64,000 nucleotides of DNA from positions 1 through 64,000 of the forward strand of contig WFMF01000424.1 in assembly GCA_011033025.1 (NCBI GenBank), read 5' to 3'. A model generated the notes under the pieces. The model did no database searches. It saw nothing but the letters and a program-made list of their open reading frames with translations, and was not told the origin of the DNA. The position numbers and the translations under genes are program-made. This DNA comes from Beroe forskalii (Eukaryota > Ctenophora > Nuda > Beroida > Beroidae). Shown here one piece after another: positions 4,993 through 64,000 of this stretch (position 1 is its first letter; each line of letters starts with the position of its first letter).

Positions 4993-7900
4993 CTGTAAGA
5001 CTTGCAGGACTTGTTCCCAAGTCCCTGAAAGGAGGAAACGAGCGAATCTCTGACAAGGGGTCAGGGGACTTGTTGGCTGTGCGGTCTTCTGTACCTGAAA
5101 ATGTGTAAGGTGAGAAAAGGGGAAGGTCAGCGTTAGGTCTTCGAGTTTATAACTTTCTAAGGTCTTGATTTCAAATTTACCATAGAAAATGTTTAATTCT
5201 GAGGATGGAAAAACTCCAGATCTAACAGGCGGTGCTAAAAGCCTGGAATTTCCAACATGCAGAGGTACAATTAATATTCTGATACCCTGTTCAAAACATA
5301 CAATTAATATTTAAGTACAGAATAATGCTGCTTGGATACACTCTACTACAGCATTATCTTATTTGTTGAAACCTGTGAGAACTTCTGAAGAAGAGATAGG
5401 AGACTAGAGGGTTTTGAAAGGTCGAATTCGGAGAGTTCCAACATGTCCACGTCGAGAACAGTCTTATACACCTGTAACGGATAAATAGTTAAATACCGAG
5501 TTTTCAGAGTCAGGAAGTTCCAGAATTCAGGGTGTTGTGAGGGAGGTTTTCCTTTATTACAAAATAATTCGAACAATTCGTATAGTACCTACTATGAATG
5601 CTACTATGAAAATAACGACTTCCTCAAAATTCTATAATGAAAAGAAAATCTATTCCATTATTGCCGACCAGGTAAGATCATCCATATGCGGTAAAAATAT
5701 CTCAGGTCTTAACCAAGTCACATTTATAATGTTACCTCCTGTAACCAGACTGGTGAAACAAGGATCATTCCTCCAGAGTCCTGGATCCAGTCCAGAAACT
5801 GTGACTCCGTGACGGGAGCAGTGCTGACACCACCACTGGAAGAAGGTATCAATGGAACTCACAATCTCATAATGTACACGCGACAAAATTCAATGAATTT
5901 ACATAAAATTTAAAAGCCTTCACTAGAGTCACTTCTATTGACAATATACCTGTAAAACCCGGATTGGTGCAGCCGTCTCGTGAGATCCAGAGCCATGTAG
6001 GTAGTCACATACATGCTATCCGCATTGAGCATGTGTGCTTGAACGCTCTCACGTCTCAGGGTCCCACACATGTCACTAGCGAACTGCTGTATGGAGAGGT
6101 CCAGAGTGTGCGGGTCACTGCAGTAGGATGGTGTCATGAAACGTTCTGCAAACCTCAGGAAACCTCATGAAACCTCATAAAACCTTATAAAACCTCATAA
6201 AACTTATCATTATTAGAATGCCATGCTCGGAGTAGTCGTGTAGCACTAACTCAATATCAAGGAGATGGTTGAGGGCTTGGAGTAGAGATTTCACGAAAGT
6301 CTTGGCACTCTCTCGCTCCTCCTCGTCATTCAGCGGGAGCGTAGGGATGTTTAGAGGGGATGAAACGGTCCCTTCCGTCCCTCCTAACTCTTCACACATC
6401 CCTTCACCTATGGTATTATGCAATGAGGATTTAGAAAAGTACCCATCATCATGTCTTACTTTTATAATACTGTCTGAAGTTCAGAAACACAAAATACCAG
6501 CTTGAGTTCACAATGAATAAAGTAGGTACTTAGATAGATTACTACGCGTATTCCTGTATTCTTTTCATCATATCAATTTGCATCCCACCCCCTCACATAT
6601 CGTGCCATATGCCCTATGATTTGCATCTACCCCCTTACATATCGTAAGACATGCCCTGAGCCCATCCCATCCCCTGACATATTGTACCACATGCCCTGAG
6701 AATTGCATCCCACCCAATTACATATCGTGAGACATGCCCTGAGTCCCCCACCTTCATGAATAGTGCCGTTTGTGTGGGGGTCATCAGACAGCACTGAGAG
6801 TGTGACATCTTCCTCCTCTTCCTCTTGCTCCTTTTCATCCTCCACAGTAGCATTAGTAGAAGCAGTGTCTCCGGGACTAGCTCCCTGCTGGACTTTAGGA
6901 GCAGCTTCCTCACTGCTTAGTTGGTGGTCTCCAGCACTCTGCTCACTAGGTTCCTTCCTCTCACTACTTGGTTTAGGGTGCGTAATCGCATCATTGTCTT
7001 CTTGGTCTGAGTCGTCTCGCTCTGATGACAAAGGCATGTAGTGAATGTATTTGAGTTGTTATAGGGATTTATTAACACATAAATAAAGTTTATGAATTGG
7101 GGATGGATTGATAATACGAATGTATTTAATATTCAAAGAACTGTTCCAGCAATAGCAGAAGCTATCAAACCCTGAATGGAAGTGTAACCTGTGCGGACGA
7201 GGTCTGTCTGTTGGTGCTCCAACTCCCCAGGGGTGGCCGTAGTGAAGTAGGTTTGGATGGGAGGGCACGCGGGGAACACTTCGTCAGTTTCACTCACAGT
7301 CTCGCTCTCATCCCCTGCTCCTGCTTCCTCTGCCGGCTGGGAATTAACAAGATGTGTAATGATTGGGAAATGGGCTGCTGACGTTGGCTATGCTGTAAAG
7401 CTGTAATTTGATCGCAGGGGGAGAAAGATACCAGTTTTCCTGATAAGCAGATAGTAAATTTATGAACGGTTCAATCATTAGCACAAGATATTCCCTTTGA
7501 TAGGTACATCCCGTAAAGTTTCTGTGCACTACAATCAATATTATAAAAGTACATAGCATACATTACAGTATTTCACTATTTCCTTAGAGAACCTACTACC
7601 TGCATGTGGGAGTCCATGTCCTCTATTGCCCCACTGATCCTCTCCTTGTGTTCCAGCGTCACTCCCGAGCTGTTAGACAGCTGCTCTATAGAGTCGAGGA
7701 GGGCTACGATGACACTGGCACTCATTCCCAGCATGGTGCTGTCACCGCAGAGGGAGGACTGTGTCACCCCGTCAATCAGCATCTGATTGGGCATCAGGAG
7801 CAGGGTTAGGGAATCAGAGAATACTCTCAACTCGTGATACATAAATCTATAAATTATATGAAGTTTAATTTCTACTTTTCTAGCATCATGAACCAATGAA

Positions 7901-10900
7901 TAATTTAGTTCAAACCTTGAGAAGAGCGAAGTCTATCCTGGCAACCTCGTTTTCTTGCACTACACACAAATCGGTTAGGAGTTGGGGGTTCTTGAAAACT
8001 TCCTAAAACGTTTCTATCATACATGTATCAAATTATGTTCATTGAAATCTGTTTAACATAGATATTAGGTATTGATAGTGCACGATTCCTGATTTTAACA
8101 ATAGGCAGATTCCCCTCACCCCTTTCCATTCAAGATTACAGGCTAGAAGGCAGAGACATGAAGTAAGATAGGAGTACAAATAATTAGCTACTTGGTGATA
8201 GCAGACGTACCTTGACACCCTCAAGAGCGTGTTTCCGGAGGTGAGGGGGCGGGAACATGATGATCCTGTGGAAGAGGGACGCCAGGACAGGTCGCAGGAA
8301 GGCCTGGTGGCCCACCAGCCGGACTAGCTGAGTGGCGATGGAGTGGCAGCTTCTAGTGGAGGAGTTCGTCATCTCCGTGTTGAGGGAGTGGAGGTGCAGG
8401 AGGTCCTTGATGGTGTGAGGCTGCGCAGGCTGCACCTGAGTCAGATACTACCTTATTACGATGGTGTGGGGCTGCGCAGGCTGCAACTACAATTTGCAGG
8501 TTCTCTACTTCTTTACAGCAAAATATGTCTTAAATATAATGATACCTTTCCCCTCTGAGCAGCTTTGTCCACCATGGGGTTGCCAAGTAACTGAATCAGG
8601 GCAGGGCACAGTTGTTGCCAGATGATGTCAGTGAATTCAGAATGTTGAACAAGGAGGGAGGTGTGCTTGCCAGGAGAGTAACTAGCCCATCTAGATAGTG
8701 CCTAGAAAGGGCACACAATCAAAACAATACTACGAGTAGTTTTTAAGAATGTGAAATTAATTTAATGAATAACCTCAATCTACACAAATTATTATAGAGG
8801 TAATTGCAAATCTTTATTGCTTACTAAACAGTAAGCAGTATGGAGAATTTTCTAGTAGCCAGATTATAACCACTGTGACTTACTTCAGATAAACCTCCAC
8901 AACTGCAGTCTGCTGTCTTAAAGCATTCGTTCTGTTAGGAACCTTATCCACCAACCACTTGACAATAGTTATCAAATCATTCACCTGTCAGTTTTTCATT
9001 GATAACTTTTCTCCCAGGAACCGAACACAATCTTTGTTCAACAAAATGTAGAATATAATGAAATGACATGATAAAATATTGGCATACTAGCATTTGAGGT
9101 TGTCATTGAATTACAATGACATAAATTTTATGGATAACTAATGACATAAAACAAACATCAAATTAAGTTAAAGTTAAAAAACGAAGCTTTGAAAAAAAGT
9201 TAAAGTTAAACCTCAGGAGACTTGGGAAGAATTCCATCCACAGGCAAATTCCTTGGAAGCTGGGACAACATCTGCAGGAAGGTAGAATGTGCTAGTGCTT
9301 TTTGAGATGTTTCTTTGTGCCTAACAGCCTGGTCCAGACAAAGCTCAAGCATCTTGATGATAAGTTCATGATGTACCTCCCGAAGATCAGTACAGATGAT
9401 AGTCAAGCAAAGCTTATAGATCTCATGAAGATGCTCATCATTTGATCCAGGATATCTCAGGATCAACTCCACTATCTTTACAGCAAGTGGTTTCTGTTAT
9501 AAAGAGAAGTTATGTTATGAAAAAATAGAATATGAAATCCTACCTAATTCATACATTATTGTCTCAAACACTAAGTTCAATTTTTGGGCAATGAACATAA
9601 CGGGTCACAACTAATTATTTGGACAAATTCCAATCGCTCTTTTCGGGTGGTAAGTATGTTATTATAGGAGTTTGATATAAATATTCTGGACGTTTAAAGC
9701 ACGCAGATAAAGAATAAATTGATCTATGAGGACCGTAGATCGATTTTTGGCTTTATAACAGGCAGTTTACATATTGGTCGAAAAAATCCTGTACAACTTA
9801 AAAATCAGAAATATCAATTTAGAAATTCCAGGGTTGGTTTAAGAGTTTCATGACCAATCAATTTTTGGCTGATTTTACTGTTGGTACCTCGAATCAGACC
9901 CCTCAACAAATCCTAAATCCTGCAACAGGAAGAAAAAATATCCCAAAAAACCCGTTTTTGCATTTTTGCAAATTTTGGCATTTTTTATAACTTTGGCAAC
10001 TTTCTGCAGGTTAGACTGAGCACGTGAAAAACAGAGGAAGGATGTACCTTGGACCATTTTTAACCGTAGAATGAGTTGCAAGGCAAAGATTTGTGATTTG
10101 GACCTTGCAAATTTCTTAAAAACGCAATTGAAATTTAATAGGGTGAAAAAACTCCATGTTGTTTCAGAGAGAATCGCAATTCTGTGTCCCTAAAAGCACG
10201 AAATTACCCAATATGCAACAGTTCAGGCCAATGGAAGACTTCTTTGGGGTGTGAGTGACGAGGTTCCATGAAAATTTTTTGGTTGAAAGTGATTTTAGTG
10301 GCCCAGTAAGCAGGATAAAAACATCAATTAAAAGGCATTCTATCAAAGTTGTACAGGATTTTTTTCGACCAACTGCTGTAAACTGCCTGTTATAAAACCA
10401 AAAATCGATCTACGGTCCTCCGCATCAATTTATTCTTTATCTGCATGCTTTAAACGTCCAGAATATTTATATCCAACTCCTATAATAACATACTTACCAC
10501 CTGAGAAGAGCGATTGGAATTTGTCCAAATAATTAGTTGTGACCCGTTATGTCCAATTCCCAAGCATTTTGGTACCCTGATAAGAGAACTAAGTTCACAA
10601 CAGGAGCATTGTGCCTCATCTATGTACTAAAAACTCCCACAAATGGCCAAAACAAAATAAATGATGAATGAAGTTAGAGAAACATTTTTTTTTTGCAAAA
10701 TTGGACTTGCCAAATTTGAAAGTATTTTCAAACCTTATTAGGATTTAATGATGTAGCTTTTAACAAGGGATCACTTAGCAAATGCCTGAAGCCTGTGACA
10801 GCCAGAATACAAAACCTTGGGAGTTTTGTATCATATGCCAATTTAAGTGGCAGAAAGCAATAACTTCTGACAGTTAAGACTTCTTTCTGATTTGAAGCAA

Positions 10901-19230: not shown

Positions 19231-20089
19231 GTACTGTGTGCTGATACCGGTTATTCTAGTTTATTAGCTGATATTCCGGTTATTTTAGTTTACTGTACAT
19301 GTCTACCGTTTATTTTAGTGCGGCGCTGGAGCTACATTTTTTGTTACTTTTTGTAGCATGTCGTCCATATTCTGTAGATGTGTAGATGTAGCTTCTGGCA
19401 AGCTGTTCTTAGAGTAACATATTAATCTGCCACTAAGATGTTGTTTTACTAACCTGACCCTCAGCTTAAACCCTCGTGGGATTGCAAAGCTTTAAAAAGT
19501 AGAAAGGTAATCTGTGTCATTAGAGTCAGGCATATGCGTCATGCATAGTTGCATACATTGTAATGCAATTCGCATAATGTACATTGTACAATGTACATTC
19601 ACATTGAACATTGTACAGTTGTACATTGTTTTACTACGTGCATTGCATAAAGCAGGGTAACATATAAGTTATAGCAGGGTATAACAGGTCACTGCGGAAA
19701 TAAAATGGGATTCTTTATTTTTATCATTCATTTTTCCACGATTTCCAGGATTTATGATTAAAATTTCATCCCTAATTACGGGTATATATGGGTTTCATTT
19801 CCATTCGGGATAAATAATTTCATTAATCGACCGAAGTTACTGCATTCATCTTAGACTAAATTAGCAATTATATTCGCTTTAAGCCTGATTGTTAATTGTA
19901 CTGATCAATGCATACACTCCGGACAATAAACCCTATTATAATTTAAAACAGTCAACTGATATATAGGGCTAACGACAGCGGTAGTATAAGTGGTGATCGA
20001 TTGCTAACTGTACTTACTACCTTACTATCTAGGAATTTAGGACCAGTTTGCCACGTTTTAACAGAAGCACTTCAATTCATACACCTTTG

Positions 20090-23421: not shown

Positions 23422-23618
23422 TTATATAATAGATTAATCAAACACCCTTAGGATACGTTTATATCAATTATCACACTCGCCTTCGGCTCGAGTGATAATT
23501 GGAATTATTGCACTCGCCTTCGGCTCGTGCAATAATTCGAATTATCACACTCGCTTCGCTCGTGTGATAATTCATATAAACGTATCCTAAGGGTGTTTGA
23601 TTATCCTATATTATATAA
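23422..23618. repeat. cloverleaf DNA element 2 (end of unit 1)
   Basis: The outer ~43-bp stem contains AATCAAACACCCTTAGGATA on the left and its reverse complement (TATCCTAAGGGTGTTTGATT) on the right, with three hairpins between. Hairpin 1 is ATTATCAC...GTGATAAT (about 23466-23500), hairpin 2 GAATTATTGCAC/GTGCAATAATTC (23502-23538), and hairpin 3 GAATTATCACAC/GTGTGATAATTC (23539-23573). The hairpin tips share CTCGCCTTCGGCTCG or CTCGCTTCGCTCG. Confidence 0.85.
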
Positions 23619-24694: not shown

Positions 24695-24880
24695 TTATAT
24701 AATAGATTAAACACACTTTTGGATACGTTTATATCAATTATCACACTCGCCTTCGGCTCGAGTGATATTGAATTATTACACTCGCCTTCGGCTCGAGCAT
24801 ACCCGATTATCACACTTCCGCTTCGCTCGTGTGATAATTCATATAAACGTATCCTAAGGGTGTTTGATTATCCTATATTA
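24695..24880. repeat. cloverleaf DNA element 3 (end of unit 2)
   Basis: Same plan as element 2: an outer stem (GGATACGTTTATAT/ATATAAACGTATCC and beyond), and three hairpins with CTCGCCTTCGGCTCG tips, the middle one degraded (GAATTATTACAC against a damaged partner). Confidence 0.75.
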
Positions 24881-25745: not shown

Positions 25746-25803
25746 TCGCGTGACTTCCATCGCGTGACATCAACCCACGCGTTACATCAACTCACACGTG
25801 TGG
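25746..25803 (+). promoter_or_regulatory. possible UGGT promoter repeats
   Basis: Upstream of the UGGT start are TCGCGTGACTTCC, TCGCGTGACATCAACCCACG and TACATCAACTCACACGTGTGG, short related motifs with ACGTG-type cores. UGGT is an unfolded-protein-response target in other animals, whose factors bind ACGTG/CCACG-like sites. This is a guess from motif content. Confidence 0.2.
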
Positions 25804-52800: not shown

Positions 52801-55496
52801 TCCCATGCTGCAGGCGTACAGTCGAGACATATTCATAAACTCATCAAAAAGATAGAAAATAATGAATTTCAATAAATCCATTGTTTAATAATAAAAATTA
52901 TGCACAATTCATTCACTAATGCGTATTTGATATACTCACCTTGGCATTGGACGACGTAATTCCGATCATCACCATCTCTCAGAGGTCTTGCGGATAAAAC
53001 CTTTTTGTACAAGTCTGATCGAATCATTTCATCTCTGCCAATGGTGCTCCCCTCTAACGCAACCAAACACCGTCCCCGTTGAAAGTACATCAAATTAAAG
53101 ACAATCCAGTTGCCCTTGGTAGCTATAACTTTTATCACTTCTTTCACTCCTCCCAGTTGGTCCACTCGGCCTGCTGCACGTGTGATAAAATACGGACCTG
53201 TAATGTACCTGTTGTCAGACACCTTAACTCTATCGGATGGACGGGAAATGGGGGGGGGGGGGCTTGAACCCACAACCGCCGCTTGCCGCGACGGCTGCTC
53301 TACCGATTGCGCTGTCTTCCCGCTACTTTCACTTTTCAGTCATTTCAAGATCGGTTATACACGTGGCTAGCAGTGCTATGTTATATATTAAAACCATTAA
53401 CATATAGAATTAACTCAAATATACGAACCCTCCTCCCCCTCGACCCTCATCTCCAATGTTCCCGGGTAGCACTCCTCAGTTCGGGGAGAGTAGGAGTAGA
53501 TGGAGGTGTACAGGTCATTATCGTATACCGCACAATAGTTGTGAAACTCGCATACCACCATCTTCTTTCCTTTGCCATTCGCATCTGTGTACATAACCCA
53601 GCTGCCTTTTGCTGCTCTAACGCTGCCTATGTTGTCGTCGTAAGTCGGGATAGTGGAAACCTCCAAGTCGTCAATGTCATGGTTGACTGCCTCAATCTTG
53701 CCATGATATCCAAACTCAGTGTGAATCACGAGTCTTCCTGTTTCTGGTGAGGTGATCTGAATTATTTATTTAAAAAGCAAAATCGTTTCTGAATCCTGAT
53801 CATAATTTAGGACCTATGAAAATTTTACGAGGAAAATTTAATTAATCGAACATTTAATATGAATGTTCTACAAAACTTGATTGTGTGAAATTATGATGTT
53901 CTTCTGTCAATTAGGCTTTCAATTAATGAGCATTTAACTTATTTTCTTTTGACTCAATGGTACAGGTACAAATGGAAACGATGTGGTTCTTTAATAGTTT
54001 AATGAGAACCAATTTCGTCGTTCTACGACATCTTTACTCATTAATTGCAATCATGCGACTCTCATTCAACGACCCGATCCGTGAAATCAATTAGGCATTC
54101 GATCTTAATAAGATCTCATTACCGCTTACCTTCAAGGGACTCTATTGTAAGCGGCAAAAGAACACTTGTGATCACCAACACATGTCGTAAAGCCATTCGA
54201 GTTTGCATCCTGAGCTGTAAGTTACTATGTTACCGTATGTAGATATCACAAGTTCTGAGAATGTTTTATGAAATTTCTACATGGCCGCAATTTTAAAGTG
54301 TGTGATACTTTTAACTGATTTAATAAGTGAATAGTATGTCCACGTACGTACCAACATGGCTCCGAGCGATTCGTAAATTTCAGAATGATTTGCTCATTCC
54401 TTGAACTCGCGACACCTGAATATCAGAAAGGTTGCAAGAGATTGTGAACTGGACTCCAAAACAGTGGTGCTACTAACTTTAAATACTAGTTTACAGGGGT
54501 GATCTGTGCTTGAGAAATATCACGACAGACAAACGAAAACCTCAATTCTACCCAAGACAACAAAAGAAAATTTGCAGGAAAGAGGATTTACTAGGATATT
54601 TAGGAAATTAGGAGGTAGTAATAGGTACCCGCAATTGTACACAGTATGGATGGCTCTGAATTGACTCGGAATAAGTCTGAAAGTTGCACTGAATGCGGCC
54701 CACAAAAGCAATGGAGACACCAATCTTGCTTAAAACTATGTTTAATGCTAATGAGGGGGTTGGAAATATTGAGATGAGATCAGTGTCAGCTCAATAATCT
54801 CTCTTCGCAGGGAATAAGCTGGGTTTTTACCCCTGACCTATGAAAATGTCACAATTCAGAAAGAACGACATAAAGAAGTCTCTATTTGTGTTCATTTGGA
54901 ATTCTGATATTCTTTGACCTTACTGGATGTGAGACCGAAATCTCATTATTTTTTTTCTAAATTGTGAAAAATGGCATTTTAAGAACGGAGATAAAAATCT
55001 TTCAAACCGGCTTGATGATTATTTACAACTGGTGAACCATTCTTTCTTTCCTCGCATTTGCATTCACCTTCTTTACCCCACTTTTAACCTCTCTTTTTAG
55101 TTTTAACGTCACTTTTTATTTCTGATCTCACTTTTTAGTTTTCACCTACTTATTAGTTTTTATCTCCCTTCTTACCGCAGTGTAACAACCCGGAGACCAA
55201 GGAACCTAAACTAGATCGTGCTATGAGGATCATACCCGAGTGGAAGGACTACGATGTCAGACTCAAACAAATAATCGAGAAAGTGGACTTAAACAAAGGT
55301 AGGTAATTTAGGAGAAATAATTTACTTTTCAATAGTCAATTTGATGCTAGGACTGAGTGAGTAGGGGAAGGAAATTTAGGCACAAACGAACTATGAAACT
55401 TAAAAAACGAACTTAATGTTTTATTATCGCATTTCAGGACGAGCCCCTGAGCCACCAACGCCAGATAATCAGCCGAAGCCACACTCAGAACTATAG
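25864..55496 (+). CDS. UGGT: UDP-glucose:glycoprotein glucosyltransferase
   Basis: ER-lumenal folding sensor that re-glucosylates misfolded N-glycoproteins for the calnexin cycle. Exons: 25864-25982, 26110-26192, 26604-26722, 27104-27662, 27830-27975, 28093-28333, 28492-28710, 29089-29219, 40084-40219, 40560-40712, 40987-41085, 41489-41637, 41925-42095, 42234-42378, 42809-42963, 43146-43257, 43415-43514, 43689-43813, 44050-44195, 44489-44659, 44817-44877, 45488-45584, 45874-45997, 46229-46361, 46578-46692, 50715-50844, 51905-52063, 55181-55298, 55438-55496; about 1424 residues (human UGGT1 1555). The start gives signal peptide [19 protein letters not shown]; exon 2 continues [20 protein letters not shown]. 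Thioredoxin-like domains follow ([38 protein letters not shown]). The C-terminus is HSEL, an ER-retrieval-like tetrapeptide. The exon 21 acceptor and the intron 22 borders are uncertain. Intron 8 is 10.9 kb. Confidence 0.95.
26776..26913. mobile_element. MITE, GGGATC-family copy 1
   Basis: Inverted ends GGGATCATTCAC and GTGAACGATCCC, about 138 bp, in UGGT intron 3. The interior (GTTATATTTGTTACAAT) matches the copy at 35331-35494. A/T-rich trinucleotides flank it (TTA left, TGA right), as in Harbinger-like insertions, but imperfectly. Confidence 0.75.
28845..28962. repeat. inverted-repeat element in UGGT intron 7
   Basis: GTGGAATTCTAATTCCCCGT near 28860 is partly mirrored by ACGGGGAATTTC and GAATTCTTCCAC, making a short stem-loop of about 110 bp. 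Nothing else is seen in this intron except its boundary repeat. Confidence 0.45.
29209..29480 (+). repeat. tandem repeat starting at the UGGT exon 8 donor
   Basis: The donor context TTGACT|GTAGAACTGTTTG, TTTTATGTAACTTG is followed by at least four diverged repeats of TGTTACTTATACAACATGTG plus TAATTTAACTGTTTATTT, and by a short run of AGGTTCCGACTA units (29248-29310). The first unit coincides with the donor itself. Confidence 0.6.
29481..30951. other. intronic stretch with one open frame and one hairpin
   Basis: Positions 30043-30302 hold an open plus-strand frame after an acceptor-like ACTAACAG ([20 protein letters not shown] to [10 protein letters not shown], about 86 codons). It has no recognised family and may be an unspliced relic. 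Positions 30867-30948 fold into a hairpin with arms TTAACCCATA/TATGGGTTAA and GATCGATCG/CGATCGATC. The rest is AT-rich with nothing recognised. Confidence 0.4.
30952..32005 (-). pseudogene. Cys-rich secreted protein, paralogue A (apparently frameshifted)
   Basis: Exon 1 (32005-31891) encodes a signal peptide ([20 protein letters not shown]). Exon 2 (31717-31557) gives [20 protein letters not shown] and ends SVK|. Exon 3 (from 31390) gives [10 protein letters not shown], then STMVACVAF. The continuation [20 protein letters not shown] is in another frame, one base out relative to paralogue B, so this copy looks broken unless an unseen small intron or a base-call error restores it. The same exon structure and phases (1, then 0) are shared with the gene at 35739-37920. 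The family is not recognised; about eight conserved cysteines suggest a small disulfide-bonded secreted protein. It lies antisense in UGGT intron 8. Confidence 0.6.
32558..32683 (+). CDS. 41-residue CxxCxC...CxxC small open frame
   Basis: ATG at 32558 opens a 41-codon frame starting [13 protein letters not shown] and ending [10 protein letters not shown]. The paired CxxCxC and CxxC look like a zinc ribbon, but the frame is short, has no homologue I know, and may be a fragment of a larger exon or a transposon protein. It lies in UGGT intron 8. Confidence 0.25.
32871..33456. mobile_element. 586-bp foldback element with inverted ~10-bp arrays
   Basis: The ends CGGTAAATTGAGCGATCCGT and ACGGATCGCTCAATTTACCG are perfect inverted repeats. 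Each arm is filled with CGCCAGTATCA-type 10-bp repeats in opposite orientation, and the centre (about 33065-33165) is a long near-perfect palindrome with GTCGACACTAACTTAA and its complement. The open frames across it (SRQYHAS repeats on both strands) are by-products of the repeat. Confidence 0.9.
33457..35330. other. intronic AT-rich stretch, no gene seen
   Basis: Within UGGT intron 8. AAGTGCGCACAT/ATGTGCGCACTT inverted arms lie around 33588-33672. The remainder is AT-rich without recognised features. Confidence 0.4.
35331..35494. mobile_element. MITE, GGGATC-family copy 2
   Basis: Inverted ends GATCGTTCACATATTACGTA and TACGTAATATGTGAACGATC; 164 bp. The interior GTTGTATTTGTTACAATAAC matches the copy at 26776-26913. 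ATAA flanks both ends. Confidence 0.85.
35575..35745 (-). repeat. 16-bp minisatellite at the donor of a nested gene
   Basis: About ten units of CTGTCTGCAAACAAAC (plus strand). On the minus strand each unit contains ACAG|GTTTGT, identical to the exon 3 donor of the secreted-protein gene at 35739, the first member of the series. Because 16 is not a multiple of three, all frames stay open for long stretches on both strands. Confidence 0.85.
35739..37920 (-). CDS. Cys-rich secreted protein, paralogue B
   Basis: Exon 1 (37920-37824) encodes a signal peptide, [20 protein letters not shown]. Exon 2 (37133-36991) gives [20 protein letters not shown] and [12 protein letters not shown]. Exon 3 (36030-35739) gives [61 protein letters not shown]. 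Junctions are canonical and in phase (1, 0). The open part is about 177 residues; exon 3 ends at a donor inside a 16-bp minisatellite and a downstream exon was not found, so the C-terminus is open. If unspliced, it would continue into a [12 protein letters not shown]-type repeat. Same family and layout as the copy at 30952-32005; function unknown, probably extracellular. It is antisense in UGGT intron 8. Confidence 0.7.
36330..36600. repeat. inverted repeat built from GAATCAACCCGAAACAAGC units
   Basis: The left arm has tandem CGAATCAACCCGAAACAAG-type units, the right arm the reverse complement (TTGTTTCGGGTTGATTCGC type). They meet at about 36430-36455, where CCCTAACCCGGG lies at the centre. 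Overall it is a foldback of a short tandem array; no coding content. Confidence 0.75.
36740..36930. repeat. short inverted GGGGAT/ACGAAA repeat patch
   Basis: CGAAATTTGGGGATATTTTT and GGGGATTTTTTTCGAAAAAT with CCCCAATTTTCG form overlapping direct and inverted repeats between exons 2 and 3 of the antisense secreted-protein gene. Probably a small non-autonomous element; borders unclear. Confidence 0.4.
37335..37796. mobile_element. TA-flanked MITE 1
   Basis: 462 bp; ends CCTTAACCTCCAATATTTTA and (inverted) CCTTAACCTCCGAAAATATA, with TA on each side. It fits a Tc1/mariner-type non-autonomous element. Inside, ATAGTCGG-type motifs are repeated. It lies in intron 1 of the antisense secreted-protein gene. 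Confidence 0.85.
38168..38599. mobile_element. TA-flanked MITE 2
   Basis: 432 bp; ends CCTTATTGGCCTTTATTT and AAATAAAGGCCAATAAGG, flanked by TA on both sides. Subterminal GGCCGGTTAAAA motifs recur five times. It differs in sequence from the element at 37335 but shares the CCTTA start and TA target. Confidence 0.9.
38600..40083. other. 3' part of UGGT intron 8
   Basis: At about 39770-39870 the minus strand has a tRNA-like T arm (CCGGGATTCGATTCCCG) after a GTGAAGTGGTGCTTCTG segment, suggesting a tRNA-derived SINE or tRNA relic. Nothing else is recognised. Confidence 0.35.
41048..41330 (+). repeat. duplicated donor of UGGT exon 11, split by a MITE
   Basis: The exon 11 end (CTCGCTAACTGTACCC, CTCACCGACC, GATAAATCAG|GTTAG) is followed by another copy starting CTCGCTAACTGTACCC and resuming after an insertion as GTACCCATCACCGACC, GATAAATCAG|GTGAAA, and then a partial third copy (AATAACTGTCCCCCTCACTG). 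Confidence 0.85.
41110..41265. mobile_element. 156-bp MITE with 6-bp target duplication
   Basis: GTACCC flanks both ends (41104-41109 and 41266-41271). The ends pair as TGTCTCGACC...GGCGCGGCGTATT against AATACGCCGCGCC...GGTCGAGACA, and inner TGCTTTTT/AAAAAGCA also pairs, so the whole element is one hairpin. It interrupts the duplicated exon 11 donor. Confidence 0.9.
42367..42560 (+). repeat. 24-bp minisatellite growing from the UGGT exon 14 donor
   Basis: Eight units of GAGTGGATTAGGTGGGTGG plus ATTTA. The first unit is the exon end itself (AAGAGTGGAGCAG|GTGGGTGG), so every unit repeats a potential donor (GCAG or TTAG|GTGGGT). The unit is a multiple of three and stays open. Confidence 0.9.
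43840..44049 (+). repeat. ~20-bp repeat ending at the UGGT exon 19 acceptor
   Basis: About nine diverged units of CAGCTAATTGACCTATTAC fill almost all of intron 18 up to the acceptor CCTGTGTCCCAG|GAGTG; most carry a CAG that could act as a decoy acceptor. Confidence 0.75.
45488..55496 (+). CDS. UGGT: UGGT catalytic (GT24) domain exons 22-29
   Basis: This is the most conserved part of UGGT, described separately because it is oddly arranged. [16 protein letters not shown] (exon 22) joins [19 protein letters not shown] (exon 23). Then come the [18 protein letters not shown] helix (exon 24) and the metal/UDP-glucose-binding DAD of [11 protein letters not shown], split across exons 24-25. [20 protein letters not shown] and GDRLRGQYQ (exon 26) follow, and then [20 protein letters not shown] and [20 protein letters not shown] (exon 27). 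All catalytic landmarks I know are present, so the enzyme should be active if the transcript is spliced as proposed. Exons 25 and 26 are split by a 4-kb intron containing a transporter gene, and exons 27 and 28 by a 3.1-kb intron containing a crystallin-like gene. Confidence 0.93.
46085..46145. repeat. hairpin in UGGT intron 23
   Basis: GAATCGAAGGATCCAAA and a partner TTTGGATCATTCGATTC form a stem around ATCCATGACATGGAT. Confidence 0.6.
46881..48485 (-). CDS. GLUT-type (SLC2A-like) sugar transporter, intronless
   Basis: A single uninterrupted 534-codon frame with about 12 hydrophobic segments, typical of the major facilitator sugar-porter family. Markers: [20 protein letters not shown] before helix 2, [12 protein letters not shown] in the 2-3 loop, [20 protein letters not shown] (helices 4-5), the GLUT-like [20 protein letters not shown] in helix 7, SDRMGRR in the 8-9 loop, and [13 protein letters not shown] (helix 10). 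It probably moves a hexose or polyol across a membrane; the substrate cannot be read from sequence. No introns, while its surroundings are intron-rich, suggests a retroposed copy. It lies wholly inside UGGT intron 25 on the opposite strand, flanked by AT-rich DNA. An alternative start is not obvious; the upstream sequence has no in-frame extension that I trust. Confidence 0.9.
   Translation of the reverse strand: MEVSEKQEPDNSFRNCTALFWLVTAGLVLGCSFQYGYALAILANTLPVLKEKFDVSDIYMSGIASGNPVGAVLGAVMAGYAADLLGRRKALLLNSVFLNVGWILMAAAPSQHCFLVGRVAVGVGVGAGSVVANVFLAEISPVSIRGSIGSLFGTVGNLGILVSILLSMPQVIGDSDIGWRLAFAFPTLLVLFQAAVLMYCPDTPQYLASIKQDVEGAVMSLSKFRKVVSDQEVNDLNRIYGDDDCSRAADRVLTFREILSDSGHRLALVIGVLLHCARQLSGVSAVYNYAPQIFEAANVSDPVLGTAEMGLVALFAAATAVFLSDRMGRRFLMITGISKMVVALVGIGISQTWYATEQLQIGSCGGGGWTGPVALVSMFVYVAGFDLGLGTTIWVYVNEISAPKARAKTNMVCVVVTWGLQVLVLFTFNSIDKHLNPHTFFLFAGILTIFLIPISVMMLETSKKPVHQVCQEVKEQSKRSPPIAVFLKRSGAVDSSNGDEVRANHEKTLGTVIGNIQAFHELKVQMKTTTFNTD
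48486..50714. other. rest of UGGT intron 25, no gene seen
   Basis: AT-rich. A CCCCTAGTTTTCAGAAG-like phrase recurs around 48558 and 48796 with GGGGGCAGCAGCCCC-type hairpins near 49000-49140. No coding region is supported. Confidence 0.4.
51117..51945 (+). repeat. 11-copy array of acceptor plus exon 27 start in UGGT
   Basis: Eleven units of 78-79 bp, each with a pyrimidine tract, TTTCAG and the first ~45 bases of exon 27 ([14 protein letters not shown]). Exon-like starts: 51120, 51199, 51278, 51357, 51436, 51514, 51593, 51671, 51749, 51827 and 51905 (the true exon). The last five are 78 bp apart, a multiple of three, and the frame is open through them (26-residue period). Most earlier units are 79 bp, which breaks the frame, and the extra base exposes a TAA. 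No unit contains a donor, so the copies are alternative acceptors and not separate exons. Confidence 0.95.
52266..54208 (-). CDS. secreted beta/gamma-crystallin-like protein
   Basis: Four exons: 54208-54130, 53743-53429, 53197-52940, 52444-52266 (phase 1 at each junction, canonical sites; 276 residues). Exon 1 encodes a signal peptide ([20 protein letters not shown]). Exon 2 has a crystallin-type double Greek-key pattern: [49 protein letters not shown]. Exon 3 repeats it: [30 protein letters not shown]. Exon 4 adds a Cys-rich tail ([20 protein letters not shown] to VGTRYPR) of unknown type. Secreted, often calcium-binding, single beta/gamma-crystallin proteins occur in sponges, cnidarians, tunicates and other invertebrates; an exact role cannot be given. 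It sits antisense in UGGT intron 27. Intron 2 contains a tRNA-like sequence. Confidence 0.75.
52600..52795. repeat. paired hairpins in intron 3 of the crystallin-like gene
   Basis: TATTATTTAAC/GTTAAATAATA (about 52607-52694), and next to it ACACTATT...GTGTGGATT paired with AATCCACACC...AATAGTGT (52706-52793), with inner ATATTCC/GGAATAT. The style resembles the cloverleaf elements but has two arms and no clear outer stem. Confidence 0.65.
53244..53329 (-). tRNA. tRNA-like sequence or tRNA-derived relic
   Basis: The minus strand reads GCGGGAAGACAGCGCAATCG then GTAGAGC (D arm, A-box like), an anticodon-type arm GCCGT...GCGGC with an 8-nt loop, then GTGGGTTCAAGCCC (B-box like) followed by a long run of C and TTTCCCGT, which pairs with the 5' GCGGGAA. 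The oversized loop and the C run make a functional tRNA doubtful; amino-acid identity cannot be assigned. Confidence 0.4.
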
Positions 55497-58029: not shown

Positions 58030-61000
58030 ATGGATAACCTGCTACCTCGGATACACGGCATTGAGCATCGCTGCAGGTCTCTCTGTGCTCTGGAGGGGGA
58101 ACCCGATACAGTCTCATTCCTGGTGGGAACCCAGTCAATGATGAACGATAACGTGGTGAGTTAGTGGGAACTGGGAGTGGATGGGAACTGGGAGTTGGTG
58201 GGAGCGGAAGGTGAGTGGGAACCCGATACAGTCTCATTACTGGTGGGAACCCAGTCAATGATGAACGATAACGTGGTGAGTTAGTGGGAACTGGGAGTTG
58301 GTGGGAGCGGAAGGTGAGTGGGAACCCGATACAGTCTCATTACTGGTGGGAACCCAGTCAATGATGAACGATAACGTGGTGAGTTAGTGGAATCTGGGAG
58401 TAAGTGGGAAGGTGAGTGGGAACCCGATACAGTCTCATTCCTGGTGGGAACCCAGTCAATGATGAACGATAACGTGGTGAGTTAGTGGGAACTGGGAGTA
58501 AGTGGGAATGTGAGTGGGAGTAGCTGGGAACGTGGACTTGTCAATGTAGTTCCCGGGCCAACTCATAATTATATGTATGTATGTGCGTACTGTGTAAAAT
58601 ACTGATTTTGAGCGCAGAAACAATTTTTTAAATTCAGCAACCCTGCAAATTATTTCCCTCCTTTTCATGGCACGAAATGTAAGCACTGAACCTACTTTCT
58701 GGCTAAACAATCAAAATTTAAAGCAGATAAATTGAAACAAGGTTATTTTGAGTTTCAGCGTCAAATAAGCACAAGACACTCTAAGAGAAATGTCAAATTA
58801 AATTATCTGTTGTCTTATTAAAGATTCAAGGCAGCACAGCTGTCCTTCACAAGTCACAAGTGAAAGTTCATTCGCCGGTAACTATTCCTTCGTCGGGGAA
58901 TGTTCATTCCCTGGGGAATGTTCATTCTCTGGTGAATGTTCAATCTCGGGTGATCGTTCATTTGTTGAAACGGGTTCTTCATCAAGAGAGGATATCTTGT
59001 TTGCTAAAATTATGACATTTTTTTCTGCTGCAGAAGTTGCAGAAGTTTCGTCTGCCTGAAAGGTACCGACCGTCGAAAACTCTCTTTCCAATCGACTGAG
59101 CTCATAAGTTCGAGCAGATTTGGTTGCTAAAGAAGAATCTCCAGTACGATGTGCTTCGTTTTGATAGCCGATTATTTGATTTTTCCACTTGCAAAGAGTG
59201 GGCCACAATAAACAGATAGCACAGAGCATGACTAGCACACAAAGAATCACGATGATAAGGAGGAGAAGACCGGCCAGCCGGAATTTGAATGATGATCCCA
59301 GTTTGACTTGCTCCCTGGCCTTGCCTTCAACGCATGGTTTGGGGTTCATGTGGACAGAACATGCCACTTCCTGGTCGGTGAGGCTGTGCTGTACAGCTCC
59401 TTTCAGGAAGTAGCCTTCCTTGCAACGGTATGTGAAAACCTCTCCTTCAATGAAGTACGGAACATTGTTCTCATTCAGGAGGTCCCCGTTAGGGATTATT
59501 AACTGCGCTAAAGGACATTTTAAACTTGGTAGTCCATGCTTCACAAAGCGAATGGGTGACAGTAGCTCACTGAAGTATCCATCGTCGCCAATGGTTGTGA
59601 AGACCATCCCGCTGTACCCAGAGGCATTGTCTCGAACTTCCATGGAATGTGTACAGTCATATTCTAAATCTTCTTTTAAAATGACGAATTCTCTTGATTC
59701 TTCTGATCTCGCTAAGTAGGCCACTGGATAATACTCTTCCTCTCCTGAATGCATCCTAAACGTCAGGCTCCATTTGGGGTTGTCGTTAAGAAATACCCGC
59801 ATCAAATTTCCTGTTTCTTCAACCCTCGTAAAAACCCAAGAGTTGGCGTTGGAGCATGGCTTCCAGCTCAAAGCGTAGGCCAAATAATCACTGAATTCAC
59901 TGTCCATCTTGGTACTGTTATTAACAGCCAGGCACTTAGCTCTGGAGCTGTGACCATCCCCCTGTTTGATCATGACAGCTGTACCCTGCATAGCCAGTAA
60001 TTGCTTCACGTTGAAACCCAGGCAATCCAAACAGTCGGAATACCCCATGGGCTGGTTCATGCTGTACTGAGCTGAAGGGTTCATCGTGAGCAGGGCCTCT
60101 CGGTAGAAAGTGCAGTTGGAGGTCAAAAAGTAAAAGGTGAAGATGTCGCACATCTTCGTCAGCCTGCAGTGGTACCAACATTGCCGGAACCCGGGGACTT
60201 TGAGGGAGAAGGAGGGCTTTGTGGACGGGATGAAGAACTGTTTCGTATCCAAGCAGGACGGGAACTTGAAGAGGAGGTACGGCTCGACCCCTGTCGGGGG
60301 CTTAGGTACTGCAGGCGGTACGGTGGTCTTTTGCAGTGAATTACTAGGCTCGTTTGGTCGGAGTGTCCATGTTCTTTGAGCTGTGGCCAGACTGAGATAA
60401 CTGCTCCATATCATCAGGTATTTCATCATGAAAAACTGTGAGGCTGTTGTGCGACAGGGAATCATGTTAAAAAGGCAAATGAACAGAGGGACCTTTGATT
60501 TTATAACTATCATTACAGGGCATAATGGGTTCTGTCATTCATGCATAAAAACATAAAATTTAGCTTTTATTTGAGCATGTTAAAAGTTTGGGGTGCATAT
60601 TATATTGATTGCATATATGCTACATGAATATGTACTTCTTGTTTGAACTTCAGGTTTTAAGTGGCTCAAAAGATTTGGCCCAAAAACATGTAAAAATTTA
60701 TAATGATTTAAGGAACTACAATACGTCTACGGGCCATACCGTCTCACTGATTTGCCTAAAATCTCACTGAGGCTTGCCACCCAAGTCCTTCTCTAACCAC
60801 CCAGGTTCACCCTCGAACCAAGGCCCAGGTTCTGAAATTTCCGAACGCCCCAGGTTTACCTCACCCACCCCAGGTTCACCTCTATCCAAATAAGGTTCAT
60901 GTACCACCCCAGGTTTTGTGAAATTCAGGTTCACCTCACCACCCCAGGTTCACCTCTAACCACCCCAGGTTTACCTCTAACCACCCCATGTTCTGTTGTG

Positions 61001-64000
61001 AAGATTTTCACTGATGTTAACCATTTAGGTTCCAAAAATAACAACCCAGGTTCATTAAAAATCTAATTTCACCTGTTCCCCAGGTTTACCTTCTATTTTA
61101 CCCCAGGTTCACCTGTAACCCCCAGGTTCACCTCTAACCACCCCAGGTTCACCTCTTTGGTTCACCTCTACCACCCCAGGTTCACCTCATACCCCAGGTT
61201 CACCTCTGACCACCCCAGTTCACCTCTAACCACCCCAGGTTCACCTCAACGACCCCAGGTTCACCTCGCCACCCCACGTTCACCTGTAAAAATCTTACCA
61301 CTCCAGGTTCACCTCTACCACCCCAGGTTCACCTCTACCTCCCCAGGTTCACCTTTAACCACCCCAAGTTCACCTCTTACCACCCCAGGTCCACCTCTTA
61401 CCACCCCAGGTTCACCTCTAACCACCTCAGGTTCACCTCTAACCACCCCAGGTTTACCTCTAACCACCCCAGGTTCACCTCTACCACCCCAGGTTCACCT
61501 GCCCCCCAGGTTCACCTGTATGAGGTTCACCCCTACGAGGAGGTTCACCTCTAACCACCCCAGGTTCACCTCTAACCACCCCAGGTTCACCTCTTACCAC
61601 CCCAGGTTCACCTCTAACCACCCCAGGTTCACCTCTAACCACCCCAGGTTCACCTCTAACCACCCCAGGTTCACCTCCACCCCAGGTTCACCTGCTAACC
61701 CCAGGTCTCCCCAGGTTCACCTCTCTAACCAGGTTCGCCTCTTACCACCCCCGGTTCACCTCTAACCACCCCAGGTTCACCTGTATGAGTTGGACGAGGA
61801 GGGTGGGGAGCTGAATGACACGGCCTACCCTCACCCAGCGGGGGAGGTGTGGCATGTCGCTTCCTCGCCTCATCACAGGGAACTCCTGGCTACCTGCCAC
61901 TCCCACGTCCATAACGAGGTAGGAGGACACGCTCAATCCAGGTTTTTGGTTACGTTGTGAGTTCAATTTGATTAAAGGGGAAACAAGGGGTATTTTCAAG
62001 AAGTCAATTGAATGTTGTATCCTCATTGCAGACTGAGGATTTAATTTGAATGATGCCTTTACACCTTGATCATCATGTTTTTTATCACTGCATTCCCCTT
62101 TGTCAGGTGAACCTGGTGACGGGTGCGACAGTTTGGAAGCTGGCTGGTTCCGCTGAAGAGCCGCAGTTGGAGAACGTAGGGGAGCTACTGAAGGAAGGGT
62201 CGACTGAGACGGTGAGCATGTTAAACTACATTTTGGGGTTAAACAATTTTCATATTCGTATCATTAATTCTCTCAGGCTTTATATAAGTGAACATGTGTT
62301 CAATTCACATTAGGAACCGAGGGATATGTCATAAAACTACCTTTAATTTTAAATGCAGTCTTGGTCCCTTTTGGATCATTTCATGGAGCCTCACTTCAGT
62401 ATTTCATTCCAAGATGACTAGATAGTTTGATGCATCACTCGGCTTCCCAGATACTCACATTATCTGCATTCTAAGAACCCTCCCTCAGATTCGCATGACG
62501 GACTGGGGCCCGGAGGGGTGCGAGGGGTCTATCTGCTCTCTGGGCGACTCCTCCCTGGTAAAGTGGGACATTGACAGCAACGTGAGGGAGCACAGCTCCT
62601 GCGAGCTGCCTAAGAGGAGTAACCCTGCCTCCCTAAGGTGGAACCCTCATTCTAATGGTAGGTTATGTCCTGATGCTATTCCTGAGATCCTGGGGTGAGA
62701 ACGAGACTTATTCCCAACCGCCGGGCTCCGACCCATCCCCTCCTAGAAGAAGGTAGACTTTACCACAAGTCGCATTGCAGGAAATACTTCCTTAAATCAA
62801 GACAATTTTACTTGAGATGGAATCATGAACACACCTGTCTGATTTTAATAACTTTATGAGGCTGAATGAGTGAATAAAAGGCTTGGAATTCATGGTTATT
62901 GGTAAAAATTCATACGCATTAATGAATATTCTGACAGGTAATCAAGTGGGTATAGCGTCAGATCAGCATATCCGACTACACGACCTTAGGACTATGAAGT
63001 GCACGACAGTAATTGACAACGCTCATACCCAGACCGCCAGAGATCTGGTATGTATATTCAGTCTACTGCAGAGTAAATGAGTGAGTTGTGCTCATATTCC
63101 AGTGTACAATATGAGTAATGGGAAATAAGAATCTTCTTAATTTCCATTTGATTGCTCGAATGATATCTACCTTGCTACGAAGTTTCTGGCTTTCTAATAA
63201 AGGATTGAAATGAAGGCGAATTGATCCATGCACTTGAGGAAGAATTTGATTTCCATTCCTCCAGGACTTCAACCCGAACAGACAGTACTTCCTTGCGACG
63301 TGTGGTGACGACTGCTCCACCAAGTTTTGGGATGCAAGAAACTGCACTCAACCGCTCCTTTCCTTCGCCAACCATTCACACTGGGTATGTGAGACGGTTG
63401 AATATCATGAAACCAGTACAGATTATTATATGCTTTTACAAATCTTAGAATATCCCTGGCACCCTCTTATTATTGACAGCACTCTAATTTGCACACCTCT
63501 TTCTACACCAAGAATTGACGCCACATTTGACTCCACATTTGACACCACATTTGACACCGCATTTGACACCACATTTGACACCACAGGTGTGGCGTGTCCG
63601 GTATAACCTGAGAGATCAGCTCCTGTTGACTGGAGGGAGTGATAGTAAGGTGGTCCTGCTCAACATCCCATCCCTAGCCAGTGACTCCATGTCTGAGCCT
63701 GAAGAGGGAGGGGACGAGGGGGAGGAGGCGAAGGTTACTGAGATGCAAAGAAAAACTTTTAGAAATAAAATGAAATCTGTTCTCTGTTAGGTTGATTTTA
63801 GCTTTGCTTCCCACAATGTTTTTAAGCACTGCTCCATTTTACTGATATATCGCTAATGCAATCATTACGATGTTTCAAACTGGACATTATGGTCATTGAT
63901 CAACTTCCCGCTTCTTTCCCAGGAGTCCCTGAGAGAAGGAGTTTTGGAGGAGTATGACAAGCACGAGGATTCAGTATACTCTGTGGCCTGGTCCACGGTG
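58030..64000 (+). CDS. EIPR1: EIPR1 (TSSC1), WD40 adaptor of EARP/GARP (partial, 3' end outside)
   Basis: Exons 58030-58155, 61775-61918, 62107-62211, 62489-62657, 62938-63047, 63265-63384, 63587-63733 and 63923 to the window edge, all in phase. The peptide follows vertebrate EIPR1: [15 protein letters not shown] and [17 protein letters not shown] (exon 1), [12 protein letters not shown] and [20 protein letters not shown] (exon 2), then WD repeats [60 protein letters not shown], an acidic loop ([12 protein letters not shown]) and [18 protein letters not shown]1 binds the EARP and GARP tethering complexes and supports endosomal recycling and dense-core-vesicle biogenesis. Both sides of intron 1 are expanded into repeats copied from the splice sites, and the intron houses an antisense gene. 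The last blade lies beyond 64000. Notably ARFGEF3, in the same window, is also a secretory-granule factor. Confidence 0.92.
58099..58530 (+). repeat. 4-copy repeat of the EIPR1 exon 1 end plus donor
   Basis: Units of about 100-120 bp begin at about 58099, 58219, 58321 and 58419. Each repeats the last ~57 coding bases of exon 1 (GAACCCGATACAGTCTCATT to AACGATAACGTG), the donor GTGAGT and TAGTGGGAACTGGGAG. A stop (TAG) follows each donor in frame, so only the first copy extends the protein. Confidence 0.92.
58882..60513 (-). CDS. type I membrane protein with PAN-like and sushi-like domains, intronless
   Basis: One 543-codon frame. The likely start is the inner methionine near 60429 or 60426, giving signal peptide [17 protein letters not shown]. 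Next comes a PAN/apple-like Cys pattern ([30 protein letters not shown]). A middle region with [20 protein letters not shown] and [12 protein letters not shown] resembles a ricin-type trefoil only loosely. A sushi/CCP-like module runs from [20 protein letters not shown] through [13 protein letters not shown] to EVACSV. A strong membrane helix [20 protein letters not shown] and a ~110-residue cytoplasmic tail end in four 7-residue EHSPENE repeats. It probably serves as a surface receptor or adhesion protein; the ligand is unknown. Lack of introns in an intron-rich neighbourhood suggests retroposition. It lies antisense within EIPR1 intron 1. Confidence 0.8.
   Translation of the reverse strand: MIVIKSKVPLFICLFNMIPCRTTASQFFMMKYLMIWSSYLSLATAQRTWTLRPNEPSNSLQKTTVPPAVPKPPTGVEPYLLFKFPSCLDTKQFFIPSTKPSFSLKVPGFRQCWYHCRLTKMCDIFTFYFLTSNCTFYREALLTMNPSAQYSMNQPMGYSDCLDCLGFNVKQLLAMQGTAVMIKQGDGHSSRAKCLAVNNSTKMDSEFSDYLAYALSWKPCSNANSWVFTRVEETGNLMRVFLNDNPKWSLTFRMHSGEEEYYPVAYLARSEESREFVILKEDLEYDCTHSMEVRDNASGYSGMVFTTIGDDGYFSELLSPIRFVKHGLPSLKCPLAQLIIPNGDLLNENNVPYFIEGEVFTYRCKEGYFLKGAVQHSLTDQEVACSVHMNPKPCVEGKAREQVKLGSSFKFRLAGLLLLIIVILCVLVMLCAICLLWPTLCKWKNQIIGYQNEAHRTGDSSLATKSARTYELSRLEREFSTVGTFQADETSATSAAEKNVIILANKISSLDEEPVSTNERSPEIEHSPENEHSPGNEHSPTKE
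60514..60770. promoter_or_regulatory. probable promoter side of the antisense membrane-protein gene
   Basis: Upstream of the minus-strand start the DNA is AT-rich with no TATA box I would commit to; nothing else is seen before the minisatellite begins. Confidence 0.2.
60775..61774 (+). repeat. ~1-kb minisatellite copied from the EIPR1 exon 2 acceptor
   Basis: About 45 units of 18-21 bp with consensus ACCACCCCAGGTTCACCTCTA run directly into the real acceptor ACCACCCCAG|GTTCACCTGTATG. Each unit therefore contains a CCCAG acceptor followed by the first exon codons (VHL). Most copies are closed by TAA two codons later. The array is tidier near the exon and ragged at its far end. Confidence 0.95.
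63505..63586 (+). repeat. 12-bp repeat abutting the EIPR1 exon 7 acceptor
   Basis: Six units of ACACCACATTTG lead straight into ACACCACAG|GTGTGGCG, so the intron end is replaced by a repeat that provides the acceptor. Confidence 0.85.

What the first reader, a model, noticed from the sequence alone, without database searches (positions are those of the whole stretch)
6146..63733. Tandem repeats seeded exactly on splice junctions in three large genes and one nested gene
At least eleven arrays start or end at an exon-intron border and copy the splice site: ARFGEF3 exon 6 acceptor (8409-8490), exon 10 donor (6585-6751) and intron 11 (6146-6203); UGGT exon 8 donor (29209), exon 11 donor (41048), exon 14 donor (42367), exon 19 acceptor (43840) and exon 27 acceptor (51117); a nested gene donor (35575); EIPR1 exon 1 donor (58099), exon 2 acceptor (60775) and exon 7 acceptor (63505). 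Ordinary minisatellites have no reason to prefer junctions. A process acting at exon-intron borders, or selection tolerating duplications only where a spare splice site stays usable, would explain it.
Basis: partly seen in the sequence, partly recalled or inferred. Interest (0 to 1): 0.88.

Follow-up and report, generated by a model that had tools for sequence, protein, structure and literature searches.

The report
Repeat arrays seeded at exon ends
In this comb-jelly (ctenophore) genome, short tandem repeats often begin where coding sequence ends and copy the splice site or stop codon, a structure I found described only in lancelet genes, and they seem commoner there than an even scatter of duplications would give.

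Summary
Partly confirmed, and probably real. The window is from a ctenophore (UGGT model 63% identical to Bolinopsis, at most 41% to any other listed hit). In 42 homology-supported introns of six genes elsewhere in the genome, 7 of 26 duplication families span a junction against 1.9 expected (P=0.001; 0.07-0.085 if founders were longer), and 13 of 26 span or end within 15 bp of one (2.9 expected). The habit is not specific to splicing: 5 of 10 stop codons are spanned (2 of the 7 backed by homology), none of 5 start regions. Spare splice sites decay like neighbouring bases (61 of 76 kept, 60.4 expected). Best reading: tandem duplications arise or persist preferentially at coding-exon ends, and selection keeps those leaving one intact copy in reading order (donor, acceptor, stop). 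The structure is the known amphioxus 'mirage'; another phylum, stop codons and a measured excess are the new parts. The sample is small and not blind, and there are no RNA data.

The parts
51098..51946 (+). UGGT acceptor array: 11 copies, 78-79 bp, of a whole 3' splice site plus 42 bp of exon; last copy (exon from 51905) runs into the catalytic exon
42367..42556 (+). UGGT donor array: 24-bp unit, about 8 copies, AGAGTGGAGCAG|gtgggtggattt; first copy is the real exon end (42378)
41055..41317 (+). UGGT donor (41085) duplicated once: 55-bp copy 208 bp downstream, the two copies separated by an inverted-repeat stretch (41104-41269)
58093..58534 (+). EIPR1 exon 1 donor array, about 98-120 bp per unit; the donor 22-mer occurs at 58143, 58263, 58366, 58464; first copy is the real exon end (58155)
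60848..61789 (+). EIPR1 exon 2 acceptor array: 21-bp unit ctaaccaccccag|GTTCACCT; last copy joins the exon (61775)
8409..8488 (-). ARFGEF3-like exon 6 acceptor (8429/8430) duplicated once: 29 bp at 51-bp offset
63515..63585 (+). EIPR1 exon 7: 12-bp array ending 1 bp before the acceptor (63586); not shown to span it
43843..44040 (+). UGGT intron 17: 19-bp array (CTAAT..AG units) ending 9 bp before the acceptor (44049/44050)
6578..6746 (-). ARFGEF3-like intron 10: array starting 5 bp inside the donor (6752)
29225..29498 (+). UGGT intron 7: about 40-bp repeats starting roughly 5 bp inside the donor (29219, itself not fixed by homology)
   Evidence: by eye; TRF rows
6150..6203 (-). 10-bp array inside ARFGEF3-like intron 11 (6250-6118), not at its borders
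35568..35743 (-). 16-bp array at a proposed donor of a small nested gene; junction not verified
58867..58960 (-). 18-bp in-frame array spanning the stop codon (58882) of the single-exon gene nested in EIPR1
26110..55273 (+). UGGT gene model (part), 23 introns used in the counts
58030..63997 (+). EIPR1 gene model (runs on beyond the window), 7 introns used
4993..11480 (-). ARFGEF3/BIG3-like gene model (part), 14 introns used

Best explanation
These are minisatellites that grew from tandem duplications overlapping the end of a coding segment. A duplication across a donor or a stop codon leaves the first copy intact; one across an acceptor leaves the last copy intact; the surplus copies fall into the intron or 3' flank, where they multiply and drift. 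Duplications wholly inside an exon, or across a start codon, damage the protein and are removed. Beyond this filter there is an excess over an even scatter, so in this ctenophore duplications either start more often at coding-exon ends or last longer there. Shown here: the arrays and their intact copy, an excess in the window and in a second sample, the stop-codon cases, neutral decay of the spare splice sites. Inferred: that births, rather than survival, are biased; what breaks or copies the DNA is unknown.
For: Independent 42 introns: 7 of 26 families span a junction vs 1.90 (P=0.001), 13 of 26 span or end within 15 bp vs 2.88 (0 of 100,000 simulations). Family edges peak at the border: 15 of 47 reach 5 bp or more into the exon, 8 lie between -4 and 15 bp, density then 0-0.39 per kb from 15 to 1000 bp and 0.58 beyond. 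Stop codons: 5 of 10 spanned; 5 of 8 families in the 3' flanks vs 0.56 expected (P=0.00006); 0 of 5 start regions. No family wholly exonic within the 130-bp exon flanks searched. Spare GT/AG kept in 61 of 76 copies vs 60.4 expected. Some units are nearly all exon: 31 of 34 bp in a helicase acceptor array; 49 exonic bp matched with a 52-bp period at an RGS donor.
Against: With longer founders the independent excess falls to P=0.07 (HSP length up to 100) or 0.085 (double unit); without HECTD1 it is 2 of 7 vs 0.39, P=0.052. PHB2, PPP3CA and NPC2 show 0 of 12 spanned introns. TRF arrays against gene-finder junctions gave no significant excess outside the window (6 of 68 vs 4.2; 0 of 14 vs 0.6-0.9). 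Base by base there is no excess. Arrays inside exons gave no sign that exons are hotter than introns (12 families in 28.9 kb of predicted exons, several of them arrays miscalled as exons). Three of the five spanned stops rest on an open frame alone. Genes were not modelled blind. No RNA, no population data, one individual assembly.
Confidence: 0.55

Rival explanations
1. Pure tolerance: duplications arise evenly over genes, exonic ones are purged, and the junction cases are just those that happened to overlap a coding end. Nothing prefers junctions.
For: Introns here are short (many 120-400 bp), so an even scatter already puts some families across junctions. In the independent sample the excess is only P=0.07-0.085 with longer founders, and TRF against predicted junctions shows none.
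Against: Unit-length null exceeded in window and independent sets (P=0.0004 and 0.001); 13 of 26 families span or end within 15 bp vs 4.74 expected even with the longer founder (P=0.0002); stop codons 5 of 8 families vs 0.56. Halved divergence against a conserved copy could give up to about twofold, but high-scoring families show the excess too (10 of 30 vs 2.19 at T=32, HECTD1 intron 22 included).
Confidence: 0.27
2. A process tied to splicing or to exon-intron borders as such (for example spliceosome- or R-loop-linked breaks) seeds the duplications.
For: Donors and acceptors are both hit (8 donor and 7 acceptor ends among the 15 spanned ends listed).
Against: Stop codons, two of them in genes with homology-backed ends (HECTD1, SF3B5), are spanned as well, with no splice site in the unit.
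Confidence: 0.1
3. The extra splice sites are functional: kept for alternative or regulated splicing.
For: All 11 UGGT acceptor copies keep TTTCAG; the last copies are 78 bp apart and lie in one open frame.
Against: Splice dinucleotides decay like the 18 flanking sites (61 of 76 vs 60.4); in the UGGT array changes are as dense in the intronic part (11 in 22 columns) as in the exonic part (19 in 42); most unit lengths are not multiples of three.
Confidence: 0.04
4. The introns themselves were born from the tandem duplications (Rogers model: AG|GT in a duplicated exon piece becomes the two ends of a new intron).
For: Proposed for amphioxus mirages (PMC3087553, passages); a potato case is known (PMC4974935, search listing only).
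Against: The two ends of such an intron should match each other; one family of all those in 87 introns reached both ends (HECTD1 intron 16) and its two ends differ in sequence. The best-looking case, ARFGEF3 intron 11 as a pure GT..AG repeat, fell with the Bolinopsis protein.
Confidence: 0.04

Closest known systems
Amphioxus 'mirage' minisatellites (Adh3, globins BflGb6 and BflGb9, troponin C, PGBD5); PMC3087553 and PMC3902484, passages read
   Different: Here a ctenophore, not a lancelet; stop codons are spanned too; frequency compared with a null. Splicing and length instability, shown for some lancelet loci, are untested here
IFI6 (6-16) minisatellite with repeated splice donors in man (recalled, from no call)
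   Same: A minisatellite that starts in an exon and repeats the donor
   Different: A single human locus; here many loci in one genome
Intron gain by tandem duplication (Rogers model; potato RdRp case, PMC4974935, listing only)
   Same: Short duplications carrying AG and GT
   Different: There the duplication makes a new intron; here it decorates introns and 3' ends that exist already

Membership tests
Mirage minisatellite (as described in amphioxus) | Tandem repeats span an exon-intron boundary | tested here: met
   6 families in 44 window introns, 7 in 42 others
Mirage minisatellite (as described in amphioxus) | Both donor and acceptor boundaries can be affected | tested here: met
   8 donor and 7 acceptor ends (HECTD1 intron 22 included)
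Mirage minisatellite (as described in amphioxus) | Many but not all copies carry the AG/GT signal | tested here: met
   61 of 76 copies at 13 ends (two arrays left out because copies could not be registered)
Mirage minisatellite (as described in amphioxus) | Regular splicing is not disturbed | not testable with these tools
   no RNA; frames only show that the exon-proximal copy gives the expected protein
Mirage minisatellite (as described in amphioxus) | Length instability between haplotypes or tissues | not testable with these tools
   one assembly only
Mirage minisatellite (as described in amphioxus) | Found in cephalochordates | tested here: not met
   proteins point to a ctenophore; occurrence outside cephalochordates widens the kind and does not define it
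Splice-border-specific process | Excess at splice borders but not at other coding ends | tested here: not met
   5 of 10 stop codons spanned
Intron gain by tandem duplication | Donor and acceptor regions of the intron are copies of each other | tested here: not met
   one family in 87 introns reached both ends and the ends differ

The most novel reading that the evidence does not exclude
Ctenophores have an exon-targeted tandem-duplication process: duplications start in or at the ends of coding exons across the genome, and selection leaves them visible only at donors, acceptors and stop codons, where they keep lengthening introns and 3' ends.
Probability: 0.28. Interest if true: 0.82.

Novelty: new variant of a known kind. 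Interest (0 to 1): 0.56.

Why it matters
Mirages were an oddity of a few lancelet genes with no frequency estimate that I found. Seeing them in a ctenophore, a distant branch of the animal tree, at stop codons too and above a null, turns the oddity into a testable question: where do tandem duplications begin, and what keeps them? It also warns annotators, since arrays of copied splice sites were called as exons by the gene finder used here.

Tried and rejected
Rejected: that ARFGEF3 intron 11 is wholly a GT..AG repeat (moved its borders). Rejected: enrichment at the level of single bases. Set aside: TRF arrays against gene-finder junctions (no significant excess outside the window), because the finder recovered 35 of 45 window introns and called arrays as exons. 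Rejected: a first gene finder with too low an intron cost and versions allowing near-empty exons. Rejected: blastn self-comparison for families, which missed short-period arrays such as 63515-63585. Dropped before the final counts: HECTD1 intron 22 (array 110535-111261, CAG|GTGAGG repeated about 20 times), since its donor is not fixed by homology; with it the independent set stood at 8 of 27. Corrected before counting: ARFGEF3 introns 11, 14 and 15 and UGGT intron 13. The independent set grew from 21 introns (3 of 10 families vs 0.97, P=0.057) to 43 after I had seen the first result. It holds introns with both ends fixed in the multi-exon genes of the 190 kb that I could tie to a homologue; not modelled were the cathepsins, an F8A-like gene, a CH-domain gene and the unresolved parts of HECTD1 and PPP3CA. 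I had seen repeats in the RGS, HECTD1 and helicase models before modelling them. A higher duplication rate inside exons could not be shown. Paper searches on ctenophore repeats and introns listed nothing on junction arrays in ctenophores.

Full report
WHAT THE WINDOW IS. The 64 kb are the start of a 157,836-base contig (C497) of a 216-Mb genome. The spliced UGGT model (1306 aa) matches a Bolinopsis microptera protein at 63% identity and every other listed hit at 41% or less (120 listed of 614). The ARFGEF3-like model hits two proteins, one of Bolinopsis (47% over 45% of the query) and one of EukProt (88% over 11%), whose identifier style I recall as Pleurobrachia. The animal is a ctenophore; the species is not identified. 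Genes: ARFGEF3/BIG3-like (minus), UGGT and EIPR1 (plus), single-exon genes nested in UGGT and EIPR1 introns (a sugar transporter, Pfam Sugar_tr E=7.6e-80; a membrane protein without a Pfam match), and two small cysteine-rich genes seen by eye in UGGT intron 7.

JUNCTIONS. I wrote a protein-to-genome spliced aligner with recalled human UGGT1 and EIPR1 as guides, corrected phases by hand and then used ctenophore proteins P0001 and P0122. They confirmed UGGT donors 41085 and 42378 and ARFGEF3 donor 6752, moved the UGGT exon 14 start to 42809, removed one false ARFGEF3 exon and moved ARFGEF3 intron 11 to 6250-6118. P0122 does not reach ARFGEF3 exon 6, and P0001 ends before the UGGT catalytic exons, whose junctions rest on the human guide, the PDB match and the frame. 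The result is 44 window introns, all GT-AG. The EIPR1 model matches the EIPR1 propeller family over residues 8-282.

Six span a junction, four abut one, one is misplaced and one is unverified (see the observation check). In the spanning cases the copy that continues into the exon is the first at donors and the last at acceptors. The 51098-51946 array is the showpiece: 11 copies of a complete 3' splice site followed by 42 bp of exon, of which only the last continues into the rest of the catalytic exon.

MORE THAN CHANCE? Base by base, no: 6 of 90 junctions carry a recurring 20-mer, against 478 of 3919 intron-interior positions, 12 of 850 exonic positions, 34 of 205 decoy donors and 49 of 194 decoy acceptors. 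But a long array covers hundreds of interior bases, while it covers a junction only if its founding unit did. The fair unit is the duplication family. I collected gapless self-matches at offsets of 6-1200 bp, clustered them, and compared the number spanning a junction (5 bp on each side) with a null in which a founder of unit length falls evenly wherever it touches an intron. Window: 6 of 20 vs 1.12 (P=0.0004), but the window was chosen for this. With TRF arrays the window gave 4 of 29 vs 1.42 or 2.19 (P=0.045 or 0.14).

INDEPENDENT SAMPLE. I took 40 kb further along C497 and 150 kb of contig C1, predicted genes with a self-trained gene finder (35 of 45 window introns recovered), recognised genes by Pfam or by eye, and aligned homologues: HECTD1 (24 introns kept; one of them, 99332-99832, has its exact donor from the gene finder), a DEAD_2 helicase (4; gene-finder junctions inside one Pfam match), RGS (2), PHB2 (5) and PPP3CA (4), NPC2 (3). 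Of 26 families in these 42 introns, 7 span a junction vs 1.90 (P=0.0013) and 13 span or end within 15 bp vs 2.88 (0 of 100,000 simulations). With longer founders the spanning count falls to P=0.070 or 0.085 while the 15-bp count stays at P=0.0002. Both sets together: 13 of 46 vs 3.03, or vs 6.75 with the longer founder (P=0.011). Without HECTD1: 2 of 7 vs 0.39, P=0.052. Introns with a spanning family: UGGT 3 of 23, EIPR1 1 of 7, ARFGEF3 1 of 14, HECTD1 4 of 24, helicase 1 of 4, RGS 1 of 2, PHB2 0 of 5, PPP3CA 0 of 4, NPC2 0 of 3. The unselected check, all 137 gene-finder introns outside the window, gives 17 of 92 vs 7.18 (P=0.0006; P=0.029 with the longer founder); counted by hand these are 14 distinct arrays, 12 without the SF3B5 stop and an array called as exons, which is weak. 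TRF arrays there gave 6 of 68 vs 4.2 and 0 of 14. I had noticed repeats in the RGS, HECTD1 and helicase models before modelling them, and I enlarged the set after a first result of 3 of 10, P=0.057, so the sample is not blind.

SHAPE OF THE SIGNAL. Of 47 families (HECTD1 intron 22 included), 15 reach 5 bp or more into an exon and 8 have their edge between -4 and 15 bp; from 15 to 1000 bp the density is 0-0.39 per kb and beyond that 0.58. GC explains little: family density runs 14.6, 13.7, 18.1 and 21.7 per 1000 windows across GC classes, and junction windows have 46.7% GC against 40.2% inside introns. Outside the window (C1 positions counted from 200,000): a helicase acceptor is repeated over 2 kb with a 34-bp unit of which 31 bp are exon (63862-65947); an RGS donor (C497:72501, minus) recurs with a 52-bp period, 49 exonic bp matched; HECTD1 intron 99332-99832 carries copies of both its donor and its acceptor.

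NOT ONLY SPLICE SITES. Five of ten stop codons examined are spanned: HECTD1, SF3B5, the gene nested in EIPR1, an F8A-like gene and a cathepsin; not NPC2, the sugar transporter, EIPR1, PHB2 or PPP3CA. The last three spanned ones rest on an open frame, so it is 2 of 7 for genes whose identity a homologue backs. In ten 600-bp 3' flanks, 5 of 8 families span the stop vs 0.56 expected (P=0.00006). None of five start regions is spanned; two of these are only approximate starts and a sixth was not located. This is what selection on coding sequence predicts: a duplication across a donor, acceptor or stop leaves one intact copy in reading order; one across a start does not.

ARE THE SPARE SITES KEPT? 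At 13 spanned ends, 61 of 76 copies keep the splice dinucleotide against 60.4 expected from 18 flanking sites (HECTD1 intron 22 included; the EIPR1 acceptor and helicase arrays were left out because the script could not register their copies; with them it is 113 of 228). In the UGGT array changes are as dense in the intronic part (11 in 22 columns) as in the exonic part (19 in 42; counted). So there is no sign that spare sites are maintained or purged. Whether they are ever used needs RNA.

HOW IT MOST LIKELY WORKS. Step 1 (inferred): a tandem duplication of roughly 10-120 bp forms, often in or at the end of a coding exon. Step 2 (consistent with the pattern): duplications that damage the reading frame are lost; those across a tolerant coding end survive. 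Step 3 (seen): surplus copies lie in the intron or 3' flank, multiply and drift. Why births or survival favour coding ends is open. Slower divergence from a constrained copy could give perhaps twofold, but high-scoring families show the excess too (10 of 30 vs 2.19 at T=32). Families inside predicted exons (12 in 28.9 kb, several of them miscalled arrays) do not tell whether exons are hotter.

WHAT IS KNOWN. The same structures were named mirages in amphioxus: Adh3, globins BflGb6 and BflGb9, troponin C and PGBD5 (PMC3087553 and PMC3902484, passages read). The first calls them possibly general in cephalochordates, with unclear mechanism. My searches listed no report from ctenophores and none of mirages at stop codons; I did not search for stop-codon repeats by name, and the library lacks most subscription journals. 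So this is a known kind in a far-off phylum, apparently extended to stop codons and given a first frequency estimate.

Noticed in passing
45585-45887: The UGGT intron between the YERMLG and [10 protein letters not shown] parts shows no GT-AG borders that fit the Bolinopsis protein; CTCGG occurs at both ends. A non-canonical intron, an insertion or an assembly error; left out of the counts.
   Followed up: partly
29210-29219 and 40084-40090: Both ends of UGGT intron 7 (10.9 kb) carry CAGTTGACTG, giving two residues (LT) more than in Bolinopsis.
   Followed up: no
32865-33462: A foldback element: two arrays of the same 11-bp unit in opposite orientation, arms of about 200 nt, inside UGGT intron 7.
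   Followed up: partly
41104-41269: An inverted-repeat stretch (possibly a small DNA transposon) separates the two copies of the UGGT 41085 donor.
   Followed up: partly
592-4432: A 3.8-kb array of about 94 copies of a 41-bp unit near the contig end.
   Followed up: no
8546-8701: The ARFGEF3-like exon here changes frame between GNNC and ALIQLL; sequencing error or an unseen small intron.
   Followed up: no
51521-52105: The last UGGT acceptor copies are 78 bp apart and share one open frame, so using an earlier one would insert multiples of about 26 residues into the catalytic domain.
   Followed up: no
C1:280,000-291,500 (L014, L015): Cathepsin-like genes lie within the span of the HECTD1 gene model, one of them on the opposite strand.
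   Followed up: no
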